Part shown: positions 34,905 to 48,674 of the stretch, piece by piece
Layout of the letters: the number at the start of each line of letters is the position of its first letter
Numbering within the stretch: position 1 is the first letter of the stretch
Made by a program: the position numbers and the translations under genes
Assembly (NCBI GenBank): GCA_913056125.1
Contig: CAJXNC010000005.1
Span: 62,001 to 126,000 of the forward strand
Direction of reading: 5' to 3'
DNA: 64,000 bases
Origin: an uncultured Altererythrobacter sp.
GTDB lineage: Bacteria > Pseudomonadota > Alphaproteobacteria > Sphingomonadales > Sphingomonadaceae
The notes under the pieces: generated by a model
Seen by the model: the letters and a program-made list of their open reading frames with translations, nothing else
Database searches by the model: none
What the model was told of the DNA's origin: nothing

Positions 34905-34947
34905 GCATGAGGGCAGAATAAGCTGCGCCCTTGCGGGACGGTGATTG

Positions 34948-34999
34948 ATTGGCGCACCCGACAGGATTCGAACCTGTGACCTCTGCCTTCGGAGGGCAG
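34948..34999. repeat. attL: duplicated 3' half of tRNA-Arg
   Basis: 52 bases identical to 48596-48647. It holds the tRNA 3' end (encoded CCA, T arm, variable loop, and anticodon arm up to the 5' side of the anticodon stem) on the minus strand, and stops where the intact tRNA continues into the D arm. It is the core attachment site left by integration, not a functional tRNA. Confidence 0.93.
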
Positions 35000-35121
35000 G
35001 GAAAATGAGCAAGGTTGGACGTTCATGGAAAGAAAACCGCAGAAATCCGTCCCTTATTGTCCAGCTTCACCCTATGCTGTATTCCATACTCGTTCCATAC
35101 AAACTGGGAAAGGATCAGCAA

Positions 35122-36282
35122 ATGGCCTTGGACCTCAGCAAAGTCACCGCGCGTGGGAAGCTTAAGGTGCAGCGGGAGCCACATTGGCAAAGGCTTAGAG
35201 CCGGGTGCTTTCTCGGCTTTCGCCAATCAAAACGTGGAGGCAAGGGAACGTGGATCGCTCGCGCCTATGACGAAGATAATCGCAAGTATCGAGTGAAGTC
35301 CCTCGGTGATTTCGGAACGCTCACCGGTAACGAAATGTTTGCAGCCGCCAAAAAGGAAGCGGAGGCGTTTGCGGAGCTTATTGAAGCTGGTGGCGAGTTT
35401 CGGGCAAAGGTCGAAACTGTAGGTGATGCCTGCCGCGAGTATGCCAAGTCTCGGCCAGACGCGGAGTCCCGTTTCCGACGCTATGTCTACAATGACGCTA
35501 TCGCCAAGGTGAAGTTAGAGAAGTTGCGCCGACGCCACGTCAAGGAATGGCGCCAGCGGCTTGAGGCGAAACCCGCATTGGTAAGTCGGCGCAAGCAAGG
35601 GCCGAAGATTTATCGCGAGCGAGCACCTTCAACCATAAATCGAGATATGGTGGTGTTGCGCGCTGCACTAGCCAAGGTGCTCAGCGCTGGAATGCCCAAC
35701 ACCGAGGCGGCATGGCAAGAGCCGCTGAAAACCATCCCAAATGCCAACGGCCGGCGAACACTCTACCTTGATCGCAATCAGCGCAGGAAATTGCTGGAGA
35801 AAATCGATGGTGAGGCCGCGCCGTTCGTCCGCGCGCTGTGCCTGCTACCGCTTCGCCCAGGCGCGCTTGCCAGCCTTGCCGTCGGAGATTTCGAGAAGCG
35901 CACGTCTGAGCTTACAATCGGAAAGGATAAGTCAGGCAAACCTCGACGCATCCAGCTACCTCAAGAAGCCGCAAAGCTGCTTGCCGACCAAGCCAAGAAT
36001 AAGCTTCCCAGCGCACCATTGTTCATGCGCGCCAATGGTATGCCTTGGGACAAGAATAGCTGGAAAACCCCAATAGCCACCGCAGTGGCAGCGGCTGATC
36101 TGCCAGGGACGGCTACGGCATACACATTGCGCCACAGCACGATAACTGACCTAGTAAGTGCAGGCCTGCCATTGCTCACAATTGCCCAAATCTCAGGGAC
36201 AAGCGCGGAGATGATTGAACGTCATTACGGACACTTGGCCAGCGACGCGGCGGTAAAAGCGCTCGGTGAATTGGCGCTATAG
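35122..36282 (+). CDS. Tyrosine-type recombinase/integrase
   Basis: 386 residues from the ATG at 35122, preceded by AAAGGA; the frame is open further upstream only because it runs through the tRNA repeat. The catalytic domain has the first Arg in LLPLRPGALASL, TLRHSTITDL with Arg near 337, and the nucleophile Tyr near 369 in ERHYGHLASD. The usual histidine after box II is replaced by Thr in ISGTSAEMIE, as in many tRNA-targeting sphingomonad integrases. It lies 122 bases inside attL and catalyses integration and excision of the element. Confidence 0.93.
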   Translation: MALDLSKVTARGKLKVQREPHWQRLRAGCFLGFRQSKRGGKGTWIARAYDEDNRKYRVKSLGDFGTLTGNEMFAAAKKEAEAFAELIEAGGEFRAKVETVGDACREYAKSRPDAESRFRRYVYNDAIAKVKLEKLRRRHVKEWRQRLEAKPALVSRRKQGPKIYRERAPSTINRDMVVLRAALAKVLSAGMPNTEAAWQEPLKTIPNANGRRTLYLDRNQRRKLLEKIDGEAAPFVRALCLLPLRPGALASLAVGDFEKRTSELTIGKDKSGKPRRIQLPQEAAKLLADQAKNKLPSAPLFMRANGMPWDKNSWKTPIATAVAAADLPGTATAYTLRHSTITDLVSAGLPLLTIAQISGTSAEMIERHYGHLASDAAVKALGELAL

Positions 36283-36325: not shown

Positions 36326-37273
36326 GTGACCCTAGTCCTGTCATTCGCCTGTCACGGCATCGCCGTCCAAGTCGCTGATCGATTGGTCTCGCAGCAGCGA
36401 GGCCGGGAAATCAGCCCGCTCGACCAAATTGCCAATAAGCTCCTGATTTACCGTGCGCGGGACGCCATCGTATCTATAGGATACGCTGGGCAGGCCTTCA
36501 TTAAGGATATTCCGACAGACGAATGGATCGCCCAACTCCTTTCGGGCGAACCAAATGTTCGCGGGCCGGACGATCGGGGCGGTGTGCGCATGGGCCGCAC
36601 CCCAAACAATTGGGACATTGGCAAGGCTGTTAGGGCCATCAGAGAGCAACTCCCCCCGTGCATCGCTGCTGGGCAAATCATTCTTGTCTCGGTGGTCGGC
36701 CACCAATTCGACAGCCGGGGGATGGTTCGACCCTTGCTTTATGAATTGGCGTTGCGGCGGGACCAAGTCGATAACTTCTATCAGTCCCCGCGCCACTGGC
36801 GAGCGGGGGCAGGGTGCATTAGCTCCATTGGTATTGAAATTGGCGACCAAGAACGCGAACGCATCTTGACCCACTTGCGTGACGCGACGCCGCAGTTGAC
36901 CCATGACGAGATTGCGGAGTTCCTGACCGCGACCATACGCAAACATGAGCAGCCAGGCGTCGGGCCACACACGTCCGCCGTAATCATTCCCCTTCCCGGC
37001 TCTGCACCCGTCAGGTCAAAATTCTTCGCCAACACCCCGCATCACATCCTAATTCGATCCTCCCAAACGGATCTTAGATTGGAAACTGGCTATTCGCCTT
37101 GGGTGATCGCCCCGGGTCTCATCAAGCCGCCGACAGCAGATGTTGGTGGGATGAACTTCAATGCAGGCGGCATCGAGATCGCATGTGAAGGCGGTCGCCC
37201 GCCAACACGCGGCATATTAGGGGCTATGGGTTCCGTCGATCGGTTTAAGCTGCCGTCGCATTTGCGCCGTTGA
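36326..37273 (+). CDS. Proteasome/HslV-fold Ntn-hydrolase
   Basis: 315 residues from a GTG. After removal of Met the protein starts with Thr, as in HslV. With that Thr as 1, an Asp is at 17 (VADR, matching VAxDxR of proteasome beta subunits), a Lys at 37 in ANKLLIY (matching the NKV strand with Lys33), and SIGYAGQA matches the GxAG(G) oxyanion-region glycines near 47. Around 100 extra C-terminal residues follow the core fold. No ATPase partner (HslU-like) is adjacent. It is 43 bases after the integrase and converges, 26 bases apart, on the nuclease operon. Peptidase activity is inferred, not shown. Confidence 0.68.
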   Translation: MTLVLSFACHGIAVQVADRLVSQQRGREISPLDQIANKLLIYRARDAIVSIGYAGQAFIKDIPTDEWIAQLLSGEPNVRGPDDRGGVRMGRTPNNWDIGKAVRAIREQLPPCIAAGQIILVSVVGHQFDSRGMVRPLLYELALRRDQVDNFYQSPRHWRAGAGCISSIGIEIGDQERERILTHLRDATPQLTHDEIAEFLTATIRKHEQPGVGPHTSAVIIPLPGSAPVRSKFFANTPHHILIRSSQTDLRLETGYSPWVIAPGLIKPPTADVGGMNFNAGGIEIACEGGRPPTRGILGAMGSVDRFKLPSHLRR

Positions 37274-37299: not shown

Positions 37300-38187
37300 T
37301 TAGCGCGCCGTTTGCGCCTGGACGATTTTGCATTCAACCCAGCATGCCAGATCCCCCCATATCGGCGAGGGATCGACTTGATCGGCCAGGGCTATGATCT
37401 CTTGATACGAAATGCATCTAGGCGGCAAAGCCGCTCTTGCAAATGGCGGAAGCCAGCCCAGATCGCGGGCTTTGTTTTCGGTCGGAAAGCCGCCGCCGGC
37501 TGCATAGGCGATAACGCAGCGAGCGGCCTTTCCGTGCAGCCGACCTAGTTCGTGGGCCAGTGCCATATTCCGCATCCACTGGAATGCCTCTCCCTTGAAT
37601 GGACAGGGACTGTAGACAGCGTTTGGCTCCAAGCTAAACAGTGATGGGATCACCTCCCAGTATCGAATCCCCTTGCCGGAAAGAGCACAACTCGCTTCTA
37701 CCATGGTGCGGGGGTTGGTCTGCTGAACATAGTCCCCGTTGCATTGACGCTGCCCTGCCCCCGGACCGGAGGCGATTTTGCGCGTCTGGCTGCAAGCACC
37801 GCCGGGTTCGGTAAACTTGCACTCAATCACCATGATGGCGTGCGCCCCGATGGCAATCGCGTCAACCTGCGTCTGGCGGGGTTCGCATAGGTGATTCTGG
37901 GGATCCATCCATTCCAGTTCAAGCGTCCACGGACCACCTGGAGGCAGATCGGCCTCGGCGGCGAGAGCATCTAGCACAGTGTCGCGCCGACTATTGGCCA
38001 TTGCTCGGACTGTCCCGAAAACATCGATGGCTAAAGCTTGTGATGAATTGGACTTGTCCGCTTGGACCTCGTTTCGCTTGTCACGGTGCCAAGGGAATAT
38101 CTGCCAATCCTCTATTGCCGCATATGATGCCTCAAATAGATTGTTCCGCAAGCTGGCGAGTTTCTCGGAGGAGATAGGTGACCCCAT
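37300..38187 (-). CDS. PD-(D/E)xK nuclease-like protein
   Basis: 295 residues from the ATG at 38187, one base after the HNH gene's stop; a GTG at 38211 would overlap that gene by 23 bases. TQVDAIAIGAHAIMVIECKF gives Asp109 and Glu122-x-Lys124, the D...ExK metal-binding arrangement of restriction-type endonucleases, on two predicted beta strands. Several Cys follow but no zinc knuckle is clear. It is the last gene of the SIR2 - HNH - nuclease operon. Likely cleaves DNA; sequence specificity unknown. Confidence 0.68.
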   Translation of the reverse strand: MGSPISSEKLASLRNNLFEASYAAIEDWQIFPWHRDKRNEVQADKSNSSQALAIDVFGTVRAMANSRRDTVLDALAAEADLPPGGPWTLELEWMDPQNHLCEPRQTQVDAIAIGAHAIMVIECKFTEPGGACSQTRKIASGPGAGQRQCNGDYVQQTNPRTMVEASCALSGKGIRYWEVIPSLFSLEPNAVYSPCPFKGEAFQWMRNMALAHELGRLHGKAARCVIAYAAGGGFPTENKARDLGWLPPFARAALPPRCISYQEIIALADQVDPSPIWGDLACWVECKIVQAQTAR

Positions 38188-38188
38188 G

Positions 38189-39181
38189 TCAGCCAGCCCT
38201 GTGGTGATCACGCAAACGATTGAGCAGCCTTCGGACCAATTCGTCAGGATCTGCCCTCTTCCAGCGATTCATAAACCGGCAAACGATTTGCACGTTTTCT
38301 GGCGCATAATTCCCGTTGCTATCGATACGGTCGAGCGAAGCCAGCATTTCAGGATCGTCGCATTCCGCATCGTAGCCCAGTGGAAGGCCGGTTAGTGCGC
38401 AGAGATCTTCCTGTTCGCCCATTAGCCTGCGTAACAGTGCCTCGCAGTCGGTGAGGCCGAGCGTAGTGTTCTTCTCCTTGACCTTGCTCTCGACTGTCTG
38501 TCCGTTAGATTGAGAAACGGTCGCAAGCATGGTCCGCGCCATACGTGCGGCTGCGATCTCCTTCGGCGAGAACACCTTCCCAACCCGTTTCTTTGAGGAA
38601 GCCTCTTTCTCTTTGAACAATGGGAGGCCGTGCCATTTGTCCAACGGTTGCCCTGCTACAAGAGCGCGCGCGTAGTCGGAATAGCCCCTGTCATTCTGGA
38701 CCGACTGGAATGTCGCTTCGGTCGAAAGAAAATCACGCGCCTTGGGATGAAGTGCTTCCCACAATAATGGGCGCCCCTCCGCGTCACGGTCGGACCACGG
38801 CCGGCAGTCCTTTTCCAGAACCCAAATTTCGGGGCCGTCCCGACCCGGATTATTAGACTCGATAAGCGATTCCGACAGGTCCCCTCGGCTTGAAGTCGTC
38901 CACCAGAGCGATGGCCCTTGCCGGGAAATCCAGATGTCACCCTCGCTATCCCTGAGTTCATCGATCAAGTTAAACCAACGTCCCGCCGTCTGCTTAGTTG
39001 GCCTTTCGCCACGCGCTGTTGTGGCGCGGTCAAGGGCCGTGGCGATGTAACCTTCTCGGTCGCCGCTTTGCCAGAACGGGTGCAAATCTACGTTATCGTA
39101 AGTCAGGATTGTGCTGTTGGCCTTTGCCCGAGGCCAAAGCGCGTTAGCCTCTCCCATATTGGCAATATAGACTTTGCTCAT
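38189..39181 (-). CDS. HNH endonuclease with unknown N-terminal domain
   Basis: 330 residues from the ATG at 39181, 31 bases after the SIR2 stop; an earlier in-frame start at 39274 would overlap the SIR2 gene and add a CGKC. The C-terminal third holds a treble-clef HNH variant: CALTGLPL (Cys261), SLDRIDSNGNYAPENVQIVC with Asp284 in place of the first His, Asn296, Cys301 and MNRWK. The N-terminal 250 residues (YIANMGEANALWPR, WISRQGPSLWWTT) match nothing I know and could sense modified or foreign DNA. Second gene of the operon. Confidence 0.72.
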   Translation of the reverse strand: MSKVYIANMGEANALWPRAKANSTILTYDNVDLHPFWQSGDREGYIATALDRATTARGERPTKQTAGRWFNLIDELRDSEGDIWISRQGPSLWWTTSSRGDLSESLIESNNPGRDGPEIWVLEKDCRPWSDRDAEGRPLLWEALHPKARDFLSTEATFQSVQNDRGYSDYARALVAGQPLDKWHGLPLFKEKEASSKKRVGKVFSPKEIAAARMARTMLATVSQSNGQTVESKVKEKNTTLGLTDCEALLRRLMGEQEDLCALTGLPLGYDAECDDPEMLASLDRIDSNGNYAPENVQIVCRFMNRWKRADPDELVRRLLNRLRDHHRAG

Positions 39182-39212
39182 ATCGAAGACGCCCCCAGCT
39201 TGGATGTTTACT

Positions 39213-42200
39213 TCAATCGGCCCTGCACATTTGCCGCAATCTCCAAAATGCTGGCTCTGCTGCAAGATTGGCATCAGCCGATAGAATGCGATCCAACGTT
39301 TCCGCTAGGTCGCGAGGAGGCGGTGCGGAACGATCCAAGATCGAACTAAGCAACATGAGACATGCTTGGGGATGAAGTTCCAGATGGTTCTCGTCACCAT
39401 CAAGTCCCAGTCCGAAGGAAAGTTCATATCGCTGAATTGGGCAAACCAAGTCGAGGACAAGGACAACCGCACGTTCAAATGCTCCGCCGGTCAGTCCCGG
39501 AAGGTGAGCTAGATTCTCAGATACCTCGTGCGTCCTGGCCGATACGTCATTGGGCCAATAGTCGAGCAGGAATGGTGCCACCACGTTATCCCAGTATCTC
39601 TCGCGGTCCTGAGCCGTACTCTTCTGTCGCAGGAGAGATGTGAGTTCCCACGCCATTCTAGCAAGCACGCTATTTGGCATTCGTGTCAGAGCCCGCCGGC
39701 ATTCAACGCTTGTCAGGTCGAAGCCGCCAACACCTTCAATGATCGCAAGCGCAGCGCCGACTAGAGCCCCAGAAAGCTGCTCTCTGGTTGCCTCCTCCGT
39801 GCGGTCATGTTCGAGGGCATGAAGGATTGCGCCCCTAAGTAAATTGAACATCTCGGAATACTGCGGAGCCACAGAACGCGCGATGACGCTCATCAATTCC
39901 ACCGCCTCGTCATTTTCCTCGACTAGCTCTGGCAGAAGATTGGCATCCACCCACTCGGGCGCGATCGTCCGAAGAAACGCGAATTGCTGTAATAGCGCGC
40001 CCCGAGCTATAAGTCCGGCTCTCCCCGGCATGTTTGCTAGTAAGTCGAAGCGTTCCTTAAGGCTGTCTGCTATTCCATTGCCAGGAGGCAGTCGCATCTC
40101 GTCGAGCATGGAAACAAGGCTGTCTGATATGATGCCTATCGGGTGCGAAAAAACCAATTCGGCTAACGGGCGCTCATAGTCACCGTCATCGAGCGCAAGC
40201 GCACCAGCCGCCAGTTGATCCCAAAGCCTCAGAATCTTCGGGAAGGTCGGGCCTGCGGTAGTGCTGGCATTTTGCTCGATGATACTCGCAAGCTGATAGG
40301 CAACTGGCGAGAGCCCTTCGTTCGGAACTTCCGAGATGACGTCAAGTATCTCGGAGAGCGGTGGGAGATCTTCGGGAAGCTCCTCTGTTCCTCTTGCTCC
40401 ATAGAGTCCCAACAAGGGTTGCCAGCGACCCGATGGAAACGCGCCATTCTCGTGCGCGCTGTAAAGGGCTGAAAATGCGCGTCTTGGTTCATTGCGAGCG
40501 AATACAGTCCAGAGGTCGGCCTGTTCGATACGGTTTGAACTCTCAAATGCTTCAGCACTTTCAAGAAGTTCGTCATCGCTGACCTGATCCAAAACTCGAA
40601 TGTCAGCAGAATAGCCCGATCCAGACCAACTCGGGCTGTAGAGATGGGCAAAGATTGGCATCTCGCGAGGGAGATCAGGATATGATCGATATAGTCTAGC
40701 TAGGCGATTTGCCGTAGGGCGCGACAATCGGCCACCGGCACTTCGGATGCGAGCCAGTTCACGGGCTGTATAAAGCGCCCGCGCGTATGAGCGATTTCCC
40801 CTTTGAGCGATCCGATTGATCACGTCGGGAAGCATTCCGGCGAGGATGGCCCTTTCAATCTTTCGTCGTGTCGCAGGAACCAGCCTATTCCATCGTCGGC
40901 AATAGTATCGGACTAACTCCGAACAATTGTCGGATTGCCAATATCTCTGACGCGTCGTGCCTCGCAGATACCTCTCAATTCGTCGGTCGGTCTCGCGATC
41001 TCCTTCAATAGCAGCCCAAGCAGCAAGGCGTTTGAATATCATCGGTTCACGATCACACCACGCTGCGGCGATGTTGCTCGCGCGCGCGACATCTCGACTA
41101 AAGATTCTCCTCCATAGGCCCGTCATCATTCGGACAAGCGGTGCAAACCTGTCATTGTTCGCGTCGGGCTGATTGAGACGCCAGGCACCTCTATGTCGAT
41201 CATTGGTATCGACAAGTCCCTCTCCCTCCTCAGGAGCATGAACTAGGGCCAAATCATAAGACATCAGATCGCCGTCGGGCTGGAGTATACCCGCGTCGTT
41301 TCCAAGCTCGATAGCCTCGCTCAGAGCGCGATCAAGAGCGAGCAATAGGCGCTCTTCGCCACGAAGATCCTCAGGCCACCGCTCTAAGAGGCGCCGCCAA
41401 TCTCTCTCATTCGCGCGGAAATGAAAATGCGCCAAGTCGTGGATGTTTGTTGGCTCGCGTTCCGACTCATCATCCTCGCGCCACCGAAACTTTTGATCAA
41501 CTCGCAAGCGTGGTTCTAACAACTCAACAATATCACGAATGCGATTGGCCGTTATCTCTGGTCCTCCGCGAATGCGTCCAAATCGGTTAGGCGGATGGCG
41601 AAGGTTGGCTTGAATGAATAGCGTCCAATACTGACGATAGAGATCAGGAAGGGGATCGTGGTGTGAACGCAACAAAGCATCCACCGCGCGAGCGATCTCA
41701 ATCTTTGTCGAATCGTTCGCCCCAGCCGCATATTCGGCTGCTTCTCGGTCAGCCAGCCGATTTCTAAACCACGAGACGAAGGTCCAAGTCTCGTCCCGCT
41801 CGACTGGTAGCAGTTCGTCGAGCCACCGAGGGTCTTGGGTTTGTTCGGCTGCCACGCCAACGCTTGCGACTTCTTTGGTCAAATACACGAAGCTCAAACG
41901 TTGTTCGGTGGTCGTTTCGTTCGGACTTGCCGAAGCAATCGCAGACAGACGTTCCGTTGCCCATTCTAATGGCTGGCGCGCAAACTGTGCCCAACCATCG
42001 AGGGTGCGATACAGCGCGCTGTGGTCGTGTTCTGGCGCGGGATAAACCAGGGGCCGCACCCCTTTTCCGCGCCAGGCTTCTCGTAGAGACCCGGCGTCGT
42101 TGTCCGTGTCACCTACAAGAGCGAATGCCGGTCTTAAGTCAGGGAAGTTTAGTCGGCCCTCTTCGGTGGCCTCCAACATGTATCGCATTGGGGGGTCGTC

Positions 42201-42896
42201 CGCAGAGTATCCCACCAAGACGAGAGTATATCTCCGCAGAAGGTCATAAACGAAGCGAGAGGCCCATCCCGCCCGCATGTAGGCCTCACCAAAGTTCGCC
42301 GACGTGAGGACGAGGTCGGTTCCCTCTAGCCCATTGTATCGATCCGCGATTCTACCATGGAGATGAAGTACGCCGGAAAAGTCATGTGACCCTACTGCGG
42401 GCATCGCGGGACCAGCCGAACTGACAATTCGTTGCCGGGTTCGTCGTCGCCACGCCCTCTCAAACAGAGTATCGAAGTTGGTGGTGACAATTCTGGGACG
42501 ACCATCATTGCCCCGCGCTAAATCGAGTAGATCTGCATGGGCGGTGAGGCGCGTCCTGCTTGTCGGCCTGAGCAATTCCGCGACAGCATCACGGACTGCG
42601 TTGTGTGGTTGCCGCCAGTCTGTGCCGCGGTAAACGACACGCTGTTCCAAGAGACCAATTAGTCGGTCATATTGCTTTTCATCTCGCGCTGCAATTTCCG
42701 CGCGTGATGCCAAGCTTTCCGGCGTTCCTGGAAGGGCTTGCCCCAACCGAGCATATATCTGATCGGCCAGTTCGCCGAATAGAGGAAGCCTTGCAGCTTT
42801 GGATATGCCAGCGCCAACGACAAATAGCACGTCCCCGGCTCGATGAGCACGTAGAAGCTGGATTGGGATTTCCGGTCCATCCGGGTCAAATAGCAT
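39213..42896 (-). CDS. SIR2-domain protein, probable NAD-consuming defence effector
   Basis: 1,227 residues. The N-terminal 290 form a SIR2 fold: VVGAGIS (26-32), TTNFDTLFE with Asn140, LHLHGR with His180, and LVGYSADDPPMRYML (227-241). The Asn and His are the NADase catalytic pair in defence sirtuins. The remaining ~930 residues have no named domain; predicted repeated helices look like the large sensor/oligomerisation part of DSR1/DSR2-type proteins. It starts the minus-strand operon with the HNH and PD-(D/E)xK genes. Expected action: NAD depletion on phage recognition, stopping infected cells. Lower GC than flanking genes. Confidence 0.82.
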   Translation of the reverse strand: MLFDPDGPEIPIQLLRAHRAGDVLFVVGAGISKAARLPLFGELADQIYARLGQALPGTPESLASRAEIAARDEKQYDRLIGLLEQRVVYRGTDWRQPHNAVRDAVAELLRPTSRTRLTAHADLLDLARGNDGRPRIVTTNFDTLFERAWRRRTRQRIVSSAGPAMPAVGSHDFSGVLHLHGRIADRYNGLEGTDLVLTSANFGEAYMRAGWASRFVYDLLRRYTLVLVGYSADDPPMRYMLEATEEGRLNFPDLRPAFALVGDTDNDAGSLREAWRGKGVRPLVYPAPEHDHSALYRTLDGWAQFARQPLEWATERLSAIASASPNETTTEQRLSFVYLTKEVASVGVAAEQTQDPRWLDELLPVERDETWTFVSWFRNRLADREAAEYAAGANDSTKIEIARAVDALLRSHHDPLPDLYRQYWTLFIQANLRHPPNRFGRIRGGPEITANRIRDIVELLEPRLRVDQKFRWREDDESEREPTNIHDLAHFHFRANERDWRRLLERWPEDLRGEERLLLALDRALSEAIELGNDAGILQPDGDLMSYDLALVHAPEEGEGLVDTNDRHRGAWRLNQPDANNDRFAPLVRMMTGLWRRIFSRDVARASNIAAAWCDREPMIFKRLAAWAAIEGDRETDRRIERYLRGTTRQRYWQSDNCSELVRYYCRRWNRLVPATRRKIERAILAGMLPDVINRIAQRGNRSYARALYTARELARIRSAGGRLSRPTANRLARLYRSYPDLPREMPIFAHLYSPSWSGSGYSADIRVLDQVSDDELLESAEAFESSNRIEQADLWTVFARNEPRRAFSALYSAHENGAFPSGRWQPLLGLYGARGTEELPEDLPPLSEILDVISEVPNEGLSPVAYQLASIIEQNASTTAGPTFPKILRLWDQLAAGALALDDGDYERPLAELVFSHPIGIISDSLVSMLDEMRLPPGNGIADSLKERFDLLANMPGRAGLIARGALLQQFAFLRTIAPEWVDANLLPELVEENDEAVELMSVIARSVAPQYSEMFNLLRGAILHALEHDRTEEATREQLSGALVGAALAIIEGVGGFDLTSVECRRALTRMPNSVLARMAWELTSLLRQKSTAQDRERYWDNVVAPFLLDYWPNDVSARTHEVSENLAHLPGLTGGAFERAVVLVLDLVCPIQRYELSFGLGLDGDENHLELHPQACLMLLSSILDRSAPPPRDLAETLDRILSADANLAAEPAFWRLRQMCRAD

Positions 42897-43001: not shown

Positions 43002-43022
43002 CGCGCGCGCGTGCGCGCGCGT
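43002..43022. repeat. Alternating CG tract in divergent promoter region
   Basis: About 21 bases of alternating CG, interrupted once by GTG, between the divergent SIR2 and HEPN-like genes. Such runs can form Z-DNA or be regulatory. The 234-base intergenic region (42897-43130) must hold both promoters; a clear ribosome binding site for either gene is not evident. Confidence 0.5.
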
Positions 43023-43130
43023 GACTGTAGCTCATGGAGATCAATCACGCCGACAATCGCGGTTGTCGATAGATGGTTTAAGTGGATTGCTGTTCGAGTT
43101 ACGGTCGAGGATCACCCTCTCAACAAAGCC

Positions 43131-44510
43131 ATGGCCAGCAAAAAAGATCTCATCACCACAATCTTGAAAGAACTGCGAAAGGCGCAGACCGAGAAGTGGA
43201 CGCCGCCCAAGCCGGGTCCGGTCAAAAAGCTGCGATTTCCGCCAACGCTGGCCTTGGGCAACGGCGAATATCTCAAGGCAACAGAAGCCCTGCGAAACGC
43301 AGTCCATGATTATGCCAGGCTATGCTGGAACAATGATCCGGCGATAAAGCCCCGCTTTAAGATCGATGAACTCGCGAAATTGGCAGAATACGCCATTGCG
43401 AACGTGCTTGCCAAAACCGATTCTGACCGGCCCGACGAAGACCTCGTGGACGAAGTCGAAGAAGAGGTTCGGGAGCGGCTCAACGAGGATTTGCTTCGCC
43501 ACAGGCAGACAATCGAGTTGACAGTGGGTTGCCATCTCTTCGAGGGCGATAACGCCTATCCCTTGCGTGTCGGCCCCGTGATCTTTGAGACACGCGAACA
43601 ATGGCGCAAGCGGCTTGTCGCGAGAAACAAGCTCTCGCGCACTAGCGCGCGCAGACTTGAAGCCATTTGGTCGGGTAAACCAAGACGGGCACGCAAAGCC
43701 TCCGCTGATTCCCAAACCGAATACGCAATCCTCAAAGCAATCGGGGAATGCCCCGTCGCTTGCACCATCGAGACCGATGGCCTCTCATCCAAGAACATCG
43801 AAGAAAAGGGTCTGCTGGCCGCACGGCTGGCCATGTCAGCCATTTCGCTGATGTGGGAACGCCCTTCCCAGGGCGTCCAGTGGATGAAATTACTCTATGA
43901 TCGGAAGCTGCCCAACCGCCACACTGTCAGCTTTGGCGAAGGAAAATACCCTGGCAGTTCGTCCGCAAAGTCCGAGATGCCCGTTGGGCGCTGGACGGAC
44001 AATGAACTTGTCTCGAACCTGACCGAAAACCAATGGCTGCTGGATCAGGTTGGGGAAGCGCTACTCAACTACGTCCAGCCTGGACGCCCGGTTGATCGTC
44101 CGAAGGTCATGAATGCAATTTTCATGAGCCTGTTGTGGTTTCATGAAGCGACTCGCGAGCCTCTCGATCAGATCGCAATCACAAAATTCGCAGCCAGCAT
44201 GGACGCGCTTGTGGGAGGCAATGGCGAACGTGCAATCGTCAATCTGCTCGGCGCTCGGCTAAACTACAAGCCGGACGGTCCGTTGTTCAAGGATGGCCGC
44301 ACCACCAAGAGTGTAATCAGCAAGATTTATAGCAATGGTCGAAGCCGCCTCATCCATGGTTCGAGCCAAGATTTTGCCGATGACTGGACGCATATCCGCT
44401 CAAGCGCTGAAGTGACAGCGCGTCTCTGCCTCACCACTTCCTGCGGCTGGCTTTATCGGAACAGGAATTCCGACGATCTGGAAGGCCTAAGGGCGAGCAT
44501 AGACGAATGA
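43131..44510 (+). CDS. HEPN-like (ApeA-type) RNase candidate
   Basis: 459 residues from the ATG at 43131. The frame is open upstream to a GTG inside the CG tract, but that segment does not look coding. Arg404 to His409 in NGRSRLIHGSS makes an RxxxxH motif within a C-terminal helical region (about 340-440), typical of HEPN RNases and the ApeA-like HEPN family. The N-terminal half is charged and helical (LVDEVEEEVRERLN). It is divergent from the SIR2 operon. Probable role: tRNA or RNA cleavage during infection; possibly independent of SIR2. Confidence 0.6.
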   Translation: MASKKDLITTILKELRKAQTEKWTPPKPGPVKKLRFPPTLALGNGEYLKATEALRNAVHDYARLCWNNDPAIKPRFKIDELAKLAEYAIANVLAKTDSDRPDEDLVDEVEEEVRERLNEDLLRHRQTIELTVGCHLFEGDNAYPLRVGPVIFETREQWRKRLVARNKLSRTSARRLEAIWSGKPRRARKASADSQTEYAILKAIGECPVACTIETDGLSSKNIEEKGLLAARLAMSAISLMWERPSQGVQWMKLLYDRKLPNRHTVSFGEGKYPGSSSAKSEMPVGRWTDNELVSNLTENQWLLDQVGEALLNYVQPGRPVDRPKVMNAIFMSLLWFHEATREPLDQIAITKFAASMDALVGGNGERAIVNLLGARLNYKPDGPLFKDGRTTKSVISKIYSNGRSRLIHGSSQDFADDWTHIRSSAEVTARLCLTTSCGWLYRNRNSDDLEGLRASIDE

Positions 44511-44610: not shown

Positions 44611-45114
44611 ATGACGGAGTATGACTTTTCAGAACTGAGTCAGCGCGAACACATCATGCGCTCGAAGCAAGGGGATCACCAAATGCTGATTGCCCTCTTG
44701 CGATCTGGGGAAAAGCTCTCTGCGGAAACGAGACGCTACCTCGCGGATCAGATTTCGAGGGAACCAAAGAAGCGCTTTGCTGCGGAAAAGAGAAAAGGAT
44801 CATCCAGGGCAACGATAGAAAGAGATCGTGGCTTGTTATCCCTTGTCATCAAGGCGAAACTAGACCTAGCCATCGCCAAGCTTGATCTTTCACGGGCCGA
44901 ATTGTCAGGCACGCCAAATGAGATTCTAGCCTATCCAAAAGTGGTGAAACTCCTGCATACGTTTTGGGCTGACGTTCCTGATAGTCACGCCCTGGATCTT
45001 CTGGCCGAGCGAGGATACGAATTCTCGCAAGATGATCTAAATAACGCCAAGCGCCGCTACCCGGGCTGGGCAAAGATCAGTAGCGAGAGGCCTCTGCTTA
45101 CATTCTCTCCCTGA
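44611..45114 (+). CDS. Hypothetical protein of the element
   Basis: 167 residues, charged and mostly helical, with a basic stretch (EPKKRFAAEKRKGSSRATIE) near residues 50-70 that could touch nucleic acid and a YPGWAKI tail. No signal peptide, membrane segment or family match. It lies between the HEPN-like gene and the replication module and may belong to either. The 100-base gap before it holds no obvious gene. Confidence 0.55.
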   Translation: MTEYDFSELSQREHIMRSKQGDHQMLIALLRSGEKLSAETRRYLADQISREPKKRFAAEKRKGSSRATIERDRGLLSLVIKAKLDLAIAKLDLSRAELSGTPNEILAYPKVVKLLHTFWADVPDSHALDLLAERGYEFSQDDLNNAKRRYPGWAKISSERPLLTFSP

Positions 45115-45369: not shown

Positions 45370-45654
45370 GCCATGCCTCAGAATTGCGAAACCCCGCACG
45401 AGGGCGGGGCGTCGCGCAATCAACTTGGCCGCTGGTTGCTCGTCTCTCTTACCTCTCTCCAGACGCCTTCGCAAGCGATCCCCCCGGGAACCGTTCGTCA
45501 ACCTGACATCTGCAGCTTGCTCGAATTGTGCCGGTCGAACTTGGCGCAATCGGGCGCCGCTGGTTGGGCCGATCCCACTTGCTCGATGCGGTCCTGTTTT
45601 AGCCCAATCAACAGATGTCCGCTGCGGCTCGCTGACATAGGGGGGGGCCGCACT
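45370..45654. other. Interval before the primase gene, no convincing gene
   Basis: 285 bases between the HTH gene and the Toprim gene. A frame runs through on the plus strand into the Toprim gene, but its translation (many Ser, Cys and Pro) is not protein-like and the primase has its own G-rich ribosome binding site. A regulatory or untranslated leader role is possible. I see no repeat or hairpin that stands out. Confidence 0.4.
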
Positions 45655-46581
45655 GTGAACGTCGATGTTGACGCGATTGCGCGCTACTATGGTGGCAAGG
45701 TCTGTAGAGGCAATGCGCTGATCCCGACGCCAGGCCACAGCAGCCGCGATAGGGGAACCGCGATCAAGGCCAGCGCGCACGCTCCCGATGGCTGCCTTGT
45801 CGTCTGCTACAATGGCACTCAGGCCGATGCTCTGGCAGTCAAGGAAATGCTTCGCGCGGACGGCTTCTTAGCGGCAGATGGCGGGCACGAACTGTCAGCA
45901 GCGGAACGGCGTTCGATCCGGCAGGCCGAAGTTGCCCGCAAGCGCGAGCGGCTGGCGGCTGAGGAGGCGGCGGCACGATGCGCAGCGGACCTGTGGGCCA
46001 ATGCCAGCCGCGCCGACCCCGCGCACCCCTATCTTGTCGCTAAGGCGCTAGAGCCGTTCGGTATCCGGCAGGCGGTGCGCGACTTGCTGGTGCCGATGGT
46101 CGATCCCGGCTTTCGTCTGTGGAACGTTCAGCGCATCCGGCCCAATGGTTTTAAGCTGTTTGGCAAGGACGCTCGCACGGCTGGCCTGTTCTGGCCCCAT
46201 GCCGTGCACCTGAGCGATGGCAGGCCATCGGCTGGCCCGCTGGTGATCGGGGAAGGCTTTGCCACAATGGCGGCTGTCCATTCGGCAACCGGCTTTGGCG
46301 TTGTCGCTGCGATGTCCGCGCGAAATCTCGAAACCGTGGCGCACCTCATGCGGAAGCTGTTCCCCACCCGCGAACTGATCCTTGCTGCCGACGATGATCG
46401 CCGCCCTGCCGAGAATGTTGGCCTTCGCAACGCCAGGAAGGCGGCTCAGGCCATTGGCGGGGTTGTGGCCACTCCAAGGCCGAAAACGTGTTCAGCGAAC
46501 TCCAGCGTCGATTTTGCGGACATTCCGCGCAGAGATGTGGCTGGGCGTATCGAAGTAGCGCGATTGGAACGGTCGGCATGA
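45655..46581 (+). CDS. Toprim-domain (DUF7146) primase-like protein
   Basis: 308 residues from a GTG at 45655, preceded by a run of eight G. RYYGGKVCRGNALIPTPGHS at the N-terminus is the primase zinc-binding-like opening (DUF7146). The Toprim motif follows: LVIGEGFATMAAVHSATG (acidic glutamate) and ELILAADDDRR (DxD metal site). It probably synthesises primers for element replication. It is coupled to the RepA-like ATPase by ATGA. Confidence 0.85.
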   Translation: MNVDVDAIARYYGGKVCRGNALIPTPGHSSRDRGTAIKASAHAPDGCLVVCYNGTQADALAVKEMLRADGFLAADGGHELSAAERRSIRQAEVARKRERLAAEEAAARCAADLWANASRADPAHPYLVAKALEPFGIRQAVRDLLVPMVDPGFRLWNVQRIRPNGFKLFGKDARTAGLFWPHAVHLSDGRPSAGPLVIGEGFATMAAVHSATGFGVVAAMSARNLETVAHLMRKLFPTRELILAADDDRRPAENVGLRNARKAAQAIGGVVATPRPKTCSANSSVDFADIPRRDVAGRIEVARLERSA

Positions 46582-47708
46582 TGTCCTCGCAACCTATGGA
46601 CCTTGCAGAAGTGGCGCTCGATGAAGCCGGTTCTCGCATCGCGGCGGCAAGCATTAAGACCCTGGACCTTGCGGCACTTGCCCATGTGGAACCAACGCCG
46701 AAGCACTTTATCGTGCCCAAATTGGCCCCAGCGGGAGAGGTGACCCTTTTCACGGGTCCGGGAGGCGCGGGCAAATCCTTGTTGGCCCAGCAATTGGCAA
46801 CTAGCGTAGCTGCTGGCGTTTCGACACTTGGCCTTGAACTGCGGCAGTCACCGGCGCTTTATCTCACTTGCGAGGATGATGCCGATGAACTTCATTGGCG
46901 GCAAACGCATATCTGCAAAATGCTCGGCGTCCGAATGGAGAGTCTTGCCGAAAAGCTTCATTTGTCCAGCTTGCGTGGCAATCTAAACAACGCGCTTGGC
47001 ATGGATGGGAAGGGCGATGAATTTGAACTTACCCCTGCCTACACTCGACTTACTGAGAAGGTCCGTCAGGCGGGCGCAAAATTCGTTGCTCTCGACAACA
47101 TCGCTCACCTATTTGTCGGAAACGAGAACGATCGGGGTTCAGTGACCCGCTTCGTCAATGCCCTAAACCGGTTGGCGGGTGAGACGGGCGCTGCCGTCGT
47201 CTTACTGGGGCACCCGAACAAAATCGGCGATACCTATTCTGGTTCGACTGCGTGGCTGAATGCCGTCCGCTCCCAATTTACTCTTAATCACGACCTGCAA
47301 ACCAACATGCGAACTCTGACGATTGGCAAGGCAAACTATGCGCAAATGGGGGATTCGATCCGCCTTGTGTGGCTGGACTGGGCCTTCATTCTCGAGGACG
47401 AATTGCCGCCGGACACGGCACGCTCGATAGAAGAAGCCGCGCGCGCCAGAACCGAGGACAAAGCATTCATGCGATGCCTCGCTGCCTGCACTAAACGGAG
47501 GCGCAATGTTTCCCACCAGCCTGGCAGTAACTATGCGCCCAAGATTTTCGCGGCGATGACTGAAGCGCAGGGCATCAAGAAGTCGGCGTTCGAATCCGCA
47601 ATGGAACGGTTATTGTATCGTGCGGAGATTGAACTGGATGTAGAGCTTTGGAAGGGATCAAACCGACATTTCAAGCGCGGCATCCAGGCAACGGATCGGA
47701 ATCGATGA
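46578..47708 (+). CDS. AAA_25/RepA-like hexameric ATPase
   Basis: 376 residues. Walker A is TGPGGAGKSLLAQQLA near residue 55, followed by a Walker B-type hydrophobic strand ending FVALDNIAHLF and the VVLLGHPNKIGDTYSGS sensor region of RepA/DnaB-type hexameric helicases. A C-terminal winged-helix-like tail follows (FAAMTEAQGIKKSAFESAM). Together with the coupled Toprim protein it forms the element's replication pair. A second ATG lies 3 bases downstream of the chosen start. Confidence 0.88.
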   Translation: MMSSQPMDLAEVALDEAGSRIAAASIKTLDLAALAHVEPTPKHFIVPKLAPAGEVTLFTGPGGAGKSLLAQQLATSVAAGVSTLGLELRQSPALYLTCEDDADELHWRQTHICKMLGVRMESLAEKLHLSSLRGNLNNALGMDGKGDEFELTPAYTRLTEKVRQAGAKFVALDNIAHLFVGNENDRGSVTRFVNALNRLAGETGAAVVLLGHPNKIGDTYSGSTAWLNAVRSQFTLNHDLQTNMRTLTIGKANYAQMGDSIRLVWLDWAFILEDELPPDTARSIEEAARARTEDKAFMRCLAACTKRRRNVSHQPGSNYAPKIFAAMTEAQGIKKSAFESAMERLLYRAEIELDVELWKGSNRHFKRGIQATDRNR

Positions 47709-47917: not shown

Positions 47918-48529
47918 TCACGCGCTGTCGACGGCAAAAGACGCCAGATAACGACATGAGCATTGGTCTGGGTGTGAGCAGGATCCAAGCGGCAATAGCG
48001 GTGCGTTTGAAACACGAACTGAATTGCGATCCATTTTCGCGGCGGCCCCACATGGTCCAGCGGCCATGTTGGAGGCACAAAAGACTGCATCATTGACGCC
48101 AGTAGATTTGAAGTTTTCCAAATCACGCGAAGTGCAGAGCGCCGTCGAGATCGTAAGGCCAATCACATTGGCGGAATTTATTGGATCATTCGCTCCTGCC
48201 TCGTTCAAGGTAGCGAGAAGCTGCTTGGACAGTTTCACATTCGACCGAAGGCCAAGTGCTTTCAGAGCGACTGGGTCGAGCAGATCCCCCTGTTTGCGAA
48301 GCTCCTTATAGGTCAAAAATCTTTCGGGATGATCGGCAAAGGCTGATTCATAGAAGGCCATCGCATCCGGCTCACACTTTACGAGGCCCGACAGATTGAC
48401 GGCATATGAAATTGCTTCGGCCTTCTCCCTCCTACTCATTGCCGATTGAACAATCGATCCACGTGTGGCGGCCCAGCCGGATTTCTCGCCGCCTCGGAAA
48501 ACTCTTTTCAACCAGCCGAGAACCGCCAA
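47918..48529 (-). CDS. Hypothetical protein with Cys-rich C-terminus
   Basis: 203 residues. Helical N-terminus (GWLKRVFRGG) and a C-terminal LPLGSCSHPDQCSCRYLAS where Cys spacing CxxxxxCxC with a preceding Pro resembles zinc-binding ends of phage head-type and related proteins. It is the last gene before the tRNA end of the element, on the opposite strand to the replication genes. The 209 bases between it and the ATPase gene contain no supported gene. Confidence 0.5.
   Translation of the reverse strand: MAVLGWLKRVFRGGEKSGWAATRGSIVQSAMSRREKAEAISYAVNLSGLVKCEPDAMAFYESAFADHPERFLTYKELRKQGDLLDPVALKALGLRSNVKLSKQLLATLNEAGANDPINSANVIGLTISTALCTSRDLENFKSTGVNDAVFCASNMAAGPCGAAAKMDRNSVRVSNAPLLPLGSCSHPDQCSCRYLASFAVDSA

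Positions 48530-48595: not shown

Positions 48596-48674
<79 letters not shown>

What the first reader, a model, noticed from the sequence alone, without database searches (positions are those of the whole stretch)
36326..37273. Proteasome/HslV-fold Ntn hydrolase without an ATPase partner next to the defence operon
Seen: Thr directly after the start codon, Asp at 17 and Lys at 37 (counting from Thr), NKLLIY and GYAGQA, all in the order of proteasome beta and HslV subunits, plus a C-terminal extension. It ends 26 bases from the nuclease operon, tail to tail. A peptidase of this fold in a defence element is unusual; it could process or remove a defence protein or act as a phage-activated protease.
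Basis: partly seen in the sequence, partly recalled or inferred. Interest (0 to 1): 0.74.

Follow-up and report, generated by a model that had tools for sequence, protein, structure and literature searches.

The report
Mobile stand-alone proteasome-fold threonine hydrolase
A small mobile DNA element carries a gene for a lone enzyme built like one subunit of the proteasome; scattered relatives travel on phages and other mobile elements, so it may be a phage-related protease, but its job is still untested.

Summary
Window 36326-37273 (+) encodes 315 aa; Thr follows the start codon, and Asp17, Lys37 and GYAG are where stated. AlphaFold2 on 17 relatives gave pLDDT 87, pTM 0.89. All 35 solved chains at Foldseek E <= 0.001 are proteasome chains; VIA-align gives Z 17.1 (1ryp_H) and 16.9 (Anbu), and in 21 of 50 rows model residue 2 starts on chain residue 1. 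Thr, Asp17, Arg18, Asn-Lys37, Gly54 and PTD are in 17 of 17 relatives. No Pfam, NCBIfam or PADLOC model reaches its cut-off.

The tie to the neighbouring SIR2-HNH-REase operon is not conserved: no blastp match among neighbours in 20 other loci. The gene is the second of a 13.7-kb tRNA-Arg island and recurs with unlike neighbours, often phage or mobile-element genes. A relative, gene 36 of Gordonia phage CarolAnn, is transcribed in lysogens of a phage that has a second, unassigned defence (PMC6426606).

Verdict: a proteasome-like Ntn hydrolase of the kind surveyed by Fuchs et al. 2021 (possibly their DAH). Accessory phage exclusion is the likeliest role, unproven.

The parts
36326..37273 (+). 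stand-alone proteasome-like Thr Ntn hydrolase, 315 aa, GTG start
36329..36331 (+). codon of the predicted nucleophile Thr1 (residue 2 of the ORF)
   Evidence: 17 of 17 rows; in 21 of 50 rows the alignment starts with model residue 2 on chain residue 1 (1001 in one; one of the 21 is Anbu)
36377..36379 (+). codon of Asp17 (residue 18)
   Evidence: 17 of 17 rows
36437..36439 (+). codon of the Lys that takes the place of Lys33 (residue 38; 37 from Thr)
   Evidence: 17 of 17 rows; equivalence to Lys33 by motif order, not by a residue-level structural alignment
36476..36490 (+). IGYAG segment, counterpart by eye of HslV GFAG (oxyanion-hole region; recalled)
   Evidence: Gly55 in 17 of 17 rows; own-genome HslV-like sequence read
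37064..37270 (+). C-terminal extension, residues 247-315, strand-rich, outside the proteasome match
34945..36282 (+). tyrosine integrase ORF of the island (its first codons overlap the att repeat, so the true start is probably later)
   Evidence: Pfam PF00589, E 8.6e-12
34948..34999 (.). 52-bp att repeat next to the integrase
48596..48647 (.). 52-bp att repeat overlapping the 3' end of tRNA-Arg(CCG) 48598-48674 (-)
37300..38211 (-). neighbour: REase-ARP family protein (not part of the enzyme)
   Evidence: PF22558 E 1e-11
38189..39274 (-). neighbour: HNH/endonuclease VII-like protein
   Evidence: PHROGs 3322 E 1.3e-12, 1035 E 1.5e-9
39213..42896 (-). neighbour: large SIR2 protein, Dsr1-like; best stretch residues 2-332 of 1227, a second stretch passes but its place is not shown
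   Evidence: NF041818 E 4.2e-139 but 465 bits against a cut-off of 1400; PF13289 E 1.3e-19
45373..46581 (+). island gene: Toprim_3 protein
   Evidence: PF13362 E 5.2e-10
46488..47708 (+). island gene: AAA_25 ATPase
   Evidence: PF13481 E 4.4e-36

Best explanation
It is a catalytically competent, self-sufficient threonine-type Ntn hydrolase of the proteasome-like family. Met is presumably removed by methionine aminopeptidase, which leaves Thr1 as nucleophile with Asp17 and Lys37, as in HslV. There is a strand-rich C-terminal extension and no recognised dedicated unfoldase. The gene is cargo of mobile elements without a fixed partner (here a tRNA-Arg island; elsewhere phages, and stretches with an integrase, IS, relaxase or plasmid RepB gene). 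The likeliest role is accessory protection of the cell that carries the element: expressed from the resident element, the enzyme cleaves a specific phage or host protein during infection by another phage and stops it. Shown here: predicted fold, conserved catalytic set, partner-less and often mobile context. Reported in print: transcription of the CarolAnn relative in lysogens. Inferred: proteolytic activity, Met removal, oligomeric state, target and defence role.
For: Model pLDDT 87.0, pTM 0.89; 35 Foldseek PDB hits at E <= 0.001, all proteasome chains, best E 1.6e-6; VIA-align Z 17.1, rmsd 2.8 over 183 residues to 1ryp_H, and Anbu 5nyw_B Z 16.9, rmsd 3.6 over 198. Catalytic set in 17 of 17. 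Island bounded by a 52-bp tRNA-Arg repeat, integrase first, this gene second, 43 bases after the integrase stop; island G+C 56.3% against 62.3% for the rest of the window. Relatives in Gordonia phages Ruthy, CarolAnn and Blino; in Ruthy and CarolAnn the gene is opposite in strand to neighbouring minor tail genes (gp30-31 and gp31; Ruthy gp32 is on the same strand). In L011 it is reversed between a JAB-NLPC_P60 gene and Lambda_tail_I; in L028 it lies between a phage tail tube gene and DarT plus NADAR. An integrase lies beside L006, an IS4/5-type transposase beside L002 and RepB near L023, a relaxase near L029. CarolAnn and Ruthy (cluster CV and a singleton in PMC6426606) share 1,297 bp holding gene 36 and its small upstream gene at 92.9%, and Ruthy matches no other part of the 5,062-base query. 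CarolAnn genes 34-36 are transcribed in the lysogen, and the authors state that a system separate from genes 43/44 must be involved against some phages (PMC6426606 sections 6-8). Sparse distribution: besides the window's own genome, 1 of 296 genomes drawn from the order (own genome among the 296) and 1 of 385 from the class (own included).
Against: No activity, substrate or protection has been tested for any member found here. The near/far PADLOC control shows no clear enrichment of defence genes next to the gene. In the CarolAnn paper the authors name gene 39, not 36, as a further candidate; [quoted passage not shown] Six loci (L021, L024, L025, L026, L030, L031) show no clear mobile-element gene among the neighbours scanned with Pfam. 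Profile comparison with HslV, proteasome and Anbu profiles built here gave no significant match (probability <= 0.8%), so kinship rests on fold and active-site order.
Confidence: 0.45

Rival explanations
1. It serves the mobile element rather than the cell: a counter-defence or lysis/lysogeny-control protease that removes a host restriction or regulatory protein when the element enters or excises.
For: Second gene after the integrase on the same strand; copies lie between or beside phage tail genes in L011 and L028.
Against: In L011 the gene is opposite in strand to the tail genes beside it; in CarolAnn the relative is transcribed in lysogens (PMC6426606).
Confidence: 0.2
2. It is a specific protein ligase or amidase (as connectase is) rather than a protease.
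For: The proteasome-like family contains a ligase, connectase (PMC8665760); no unfoldase is recognised nearby.
Against: The model has all four helices (64-73, 98-108, 174-190, 193-206), whereas connectase lacks the first pair (PMC8665760).
Confidence: 0.12
3. It works with NAD-consuming defence effectors (SIR2, TIR, DarT), activating or restraining them by cleavage.
For: Dsr1-like SIR2 in the window island; a SIR2_2 gene divergent from L030, about 80 bases away; DarT plus NADAR beside L028; TIR beside the distant relative L048.
Against: These effectors are of different families and orientations; L027 instead has a PtuB-like gene; the neighbours scanned at the other loci showed no SIR2, TIR or DarT (selected neighbours only); the control shows no clear excess.
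Confidence: 0.07
4. Decaying cargo without a present function.
For: Frame-broken or truncated copies occur (L012, L014; L031; L023).
Against: Catalytic residues are in 17 of 17 members at 21-32% identity to the window protein.
Confidence: 0.08

Closest known systems
DAH and the other proteasome-like subfamilies of Fuchs, Alva and Lupas 2021 (PMC8665760; main text parts 1-5 of 6 read; no supplements)
   Same: proteasome beta-like fold, Thr1/Asp17/Lys, no co-occurring AAA+ partner; DAH is listed for Proteobacteria, Actinobacteria, Cyanobacteria, other bacteria and phages and is said to have an extra C-terminal domain without a known match
   Different: reference sequences are not held here, so identity with DAH is untested; that paper found no genomic context suggestive of a specific function
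HslV (ClpQ)
   Same: Thr at the start, Asp17, GFAG-like segment (read against the own-genome HslV-like protein), same order of helices and strands
   Different: about 70 extra C-terminal residues, Lys at 37 instead of 33, no hslU-like gene on the island; the genome has its own HslV-like gene on another contig (G000:C4; named by reading plus PF00227)
Anbu
   Same: fold (5nyw_B Z 16.9, rmsd 3.6 over 198 residues)
   Different: not matched by PF00227, which does match the genome's separate Anbu-like gene (G000:C1; 'Anbu-like' by reading)
Gordonia phage Nymphadora gp30 (taken to be BFVD A0A142KAQ6, 289 aa; assigned by length and sequence, as gp54 has the same length)
   Same: best hit in the viral structure library (E 2.3e-11); Thr, Asp and Lys kept; lies between tail genes and integrase
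   Different: 21% identical to the window protein in the alignment; shorter

Membership tests
proteasome-like family (sense of Fuchs et al. 2021) | proteasome beta-like fold with the H1-H4 helices | tested here: met
   predicted model only:
proteasome-like family (sense of Fuchs et al. 2021) | N-terminal Thr/Ser, Asp17, Lys33 and the oxyanion Gly | tested here: met
   17 of 17 rows; placement of Lys and Gly by motif order
Pfam PF00227 (Proteasome) | match above the gathering score | tested here: not met
   no match for the window protein, five relatives or the distant L048, while the Anbu-like control matched
DAH (Fuchs et al. 2021) | sequence cluster around WP_085249540.1 | not testable with these tools
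   reference sequences not held
DAH (Fuchs et al. 2021) | additional C-terminal domain; Proteobacteria, Actinobacteria, phages (not exclusive to DAH) | tested here: met
   against Table 1 and text of PMC8665760
RPC / PPH (Fuchs et al. 2021) | second helix H2 absent | tested here: not met
   helices at 64-73 and 98-108 in the model
HslV | HslU unfoldase partner | tested here: not met
   no hslU-like gene among the ten island ORFs scanned with Pfam
known anti-phage defence families (PADLOC 2.0) | match to a model | tested here: not met
   no match at E <= 1

The most novel reading that the evidence does not exclude
These lone, mobile threonine Ntn hydrolases are a single-gene class of phage defence that works through a proteasome-fold protease without an ATPase; CarolAnn gp36 is the unassigned second defence of that phage (protection against Monty, Woes and perhaps Wizard).
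Probability: 0.28. Interest if true: 0.78.

Novelty: new member of a known kind. Interest (0 to 1): 0.47.

Why it matters
Fuchs et al. (PMC8665760) found no genomic context that hinted at what the new proteasome-like proteins do. The mobile-cargo context, a cassette shared by two unlike phages and the printed lysogenic transcription of one relative turn that open question into a short genetic experiment in a laboratory Gordonia strain.

Tried and rejected
Sequence routes that gave nothing: Pfam, NCBIfam and PADLOC had no match above cut-off (Pfam's only row was DUF1707 at E 0.11); PHROGs gave one weak match, phrog_29040 at E 0.024, function unknown; PDB by sequence gave none at E <= 10; single-sequence scans of genome contigs and viral contigs found no relative, nor did a scan of viral contigs with the Sphingomonas-type subset; the plasmid collection had no protein match for the window protein, L002, L027 or L048, and the island's DNA there matched only short stretches, the ten listed lying within its first 60 bases at the tRNA end (20 of 30 records not listed). 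Profile-profile comparison with HslV, proteasome and Anbu profiles built here was not significant (probability 0.2-0.8%; reversed controls 0.0-0.2%).

HslV is not among the 50 rows shown; this is not evidence against kinship. No sigma-70-like promoter was found near the gene (0 found, 0.6 expected).

Defence-operon partnership: rejected as a conserved feature. Defence-gene enrichment: picks looked rich (SIR2, PtuB, TIR), but I chose those 10 proteins; the later control took 32 near and 32 far ORFs from 8 loci (L022, L025-L031; ORFs from a simple picker) at E <= 1e-10. It listed 67 near and 35 far matched PADLOC models, redundant and only 25 shown each, with about four kinds in both lists, so they cannot be turned into protein counts. 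Far ORFs may lie on the same islands. I claim no enrichment.

Literature (only the held open library): Ntn hydrolase + phage defense + proteasome, 0 papers; proteasome-like + anti-phage + defense island, 0 papers; the title phrase of Fuchs 2021 is in 5 papers, 4 listed (listing only); one search listed 20 of 718 papers, none of the 20 with 'Ntn hydrolase' (listing only); two searches were seen as listings apart from the two papers read in part.

Partial hits L015, L016, L047 and L049 (E 9e-5 to 6e-4) were read by eye as chance matches.

Full report
Observation. The ORF 36326-37273 (+) is real and has only one possible start, a GTG; the codon after it is Thr.

What it is by family search. No Pfam, NCBIfam or PADLOC model matched above its cut-off; PHROGs gave one weak match of unknown function (E 0.024) and PDB sequences none. 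Relatives were found step by step: Gordonia phages Ruthy, CarolAnn and Blino, a genome of the same family, genomes of the same class and phylum, IMG/VR contigs and 11 loci in genome contigs (Acidobacteria MAG, two Phenylobacterium MAGs, Proteobacteria and Desulfobacteraceae MAGs, Sphingomonas, Sphingobium, two Pseudomonas, Mycobacterium, Nocardia). The family is rare. Matches at E <= 0.001, own or already known genomes included: 2 of 296 genomes of the order (own and one more), 2 of 385 of the class (own and one more), 5 of 378 of the phylum (own, two good, two weak ones, L015 and L016, that look like chance), 2 of 199 in the genus of the P. kilonensis locus (the known one and a weak one), 3 of 219 in the order of the Mycobacterium locus (the known one, the distant relative L048, a weak one), 2 of 209 in the family (own and the one already known).

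Fold. With 17 relatives the model reached pLDDT 87.0 and pTM 0.89. Elements run strand-strand (Asp18 ends the second), hairpin strands, helices 64-73 and 98-108, four strands, helices 174-190 and 193-206, strand 216-222: the proteasome order. Foldseek against PDB returned 35 chains at E <= 0.001, all described as proteasome, best E 1.6e-6. VIA-align, a second look at Foldseek's own ranks, gave Z 17.1 (1ryp_H, rmsd 2.8, 183 residues) and 16.9 for Anbu (5nyw_B); in 21 of the 50 rows shown the alignment starts with model residue 2 on chain residue 1 (1001 in one), while other rows begin one residue away or use precursor numbering. Residues beyond about 248 lie outside these matches. The best viral-library hit is a 289-aa protein of Gordonia phage Nymphadora, taken to be gp30 by length and sequence; it keeps Thr, Asp and Lys.

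Active site. Thr2, Asp18, Arg19, Asn37, Lys38, Gly55, Ala57, Pro63-Thr64-Asp65, Gly125 and Val212 are in 17 of 17 rows. Rows are not all independent: the CarolAnn and Ruthy proteins are 96% identical, the two Pseudomonas 83%. The proteasome Asp166/Ser169 pair (recalled) seems not to be kept; Val-Gly stands there by eye.

Home of the gene. A 52-bp direct repeat of the tRNA-Arg(CCG) 3' end at 34948 and 48596 bounds a 13.7-kb island with integrase (PF00589), this gene, a converging operon of REase-ARP, HNH-like and SIR2 proteins, three ORFs without a Pfam match above cut-off (43011-44510, 44611-45114, 47918-48529), a Toprim_3 gene and an AAA_25 gene. The rest of the genome has an HslV-like and an Anbu-like gene on other contigs, so this is a third proteasome-like gene.

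Context elsewhere. Blastp (E <= 1e-4) among the neighbours held for 21 loci, window included (L013 and L026 are one place; several loci are short), found no homologue of the island's defence genes elsewhere; nor did six wider stretches at E <= 1e-3. Neighbours scanned with Pfam include phage tail genes (L011, L028), a terminase-like gene (L022), an integrase (L006), transposases (L002, L027), a RepB gene (L023), a relaxase (L029), a RhuM gene (L026), or genes without a mobile mark (L021, L024, L025, L030, L031). SIR2_2 beside L030, DarT with NADAR beside L028, TIR beside the distant L048 and a PtuB-like gene near L027 are notable, but the near/far PADLOC control does not show enrichment.

Link to an experiment in print. 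In PMC6426606 (sections 6, 7 and 8 and passages read) CarolAnn genes 34-36 are transcribed in the lysogen at somewhat lower levels; genes 43/44 explain only part of the protection, and a separate system must be involved. In its Table 1 Monty and Woes are reduced (10^-5) only by the CarolAnn lysogen among the seven tested; Wizard is reduced by CarolAnn and, less, by Utz. In the phage collection gene 36 was found only in CarolAnn, Blino and Ruthy, whereas gene 39 is shared with Utz and Blueberry among others, whose lysogens do not reduce Monty or Woes. This fits gene 36, but genes 34, 35 or 38 may fit as well; it is my inference, not a result of the paper, whose authors name gene 39.

Known kinds. 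Fuchs et al. 2021 (PMC8665760, parts 1-5 of 6 read) describe 22 proteasome-like subfamilies, some in phages, without co-occurring AAA+ partners or informative contexts. DAH (Proteobacteria, Actinobacteria, phages; extra C-terminal domain) fits best; RPC and PPH lack helix H2, which the model has. DAH membership could not be tested by sequence. I therefore file it as a new member of a known kind, with a concrete and testable but unproven role in phage exclusion.

Noticed in passing
window 37300-42896 (-): Overlapping three-gene operon: large SIR2 protein, Dsr1-like (best stretch residues 2-332 of 1227; 465 bits against a cut-off of 1400), HNH/endonuclease VII-like protein, REase-ARP protein; a possible unrecorded Dsr1-like system.
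   Followed up: partly
window 43011-44510 and 44611-45114 (+): Two island genes of unknown function; the first matches PHROG 38039 (E 7.1e-16), unknown.
   Followed up: no
L048 844-1662 (-) and 2092-3027 (+): Distant 272-aa relative next to a TIR-domain gene (weak GRAM match below cut-off), in a 10.7-Mb genome of the order searched around the Mycobacterium locus.
   Followed up: partly
L028 8995-12752: Phage tail tube gene, the Ntn hydrolase, then DarT with a NADAR antitoxin-like gene.
   Followed up: partly
L026 7785-8369 and 10001-10975: In Phenylobacterium the hydrolase lies about 1.6 kb from an HslV-like gene (PF00227); probably coincidence.
   Followed up: no
L004 4749-5981; L003 4713-5981: CarolAnn and Ruthy share a 1,297-bp stretch (small gene plus hydrolase); other Gordonia phages such as Lysidious and Samba share the upstream part without the hydrolase, as in a hotspot with exchangeable cargo.
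   Followed up: partly
L066: Another proteasome-like protein (PF00227 E 1.4e-8) in the Mycobacterium sp. NAZ190054 genome, apart from two stronger PF00227 matches that lie together on another contig.
   Followed up: no
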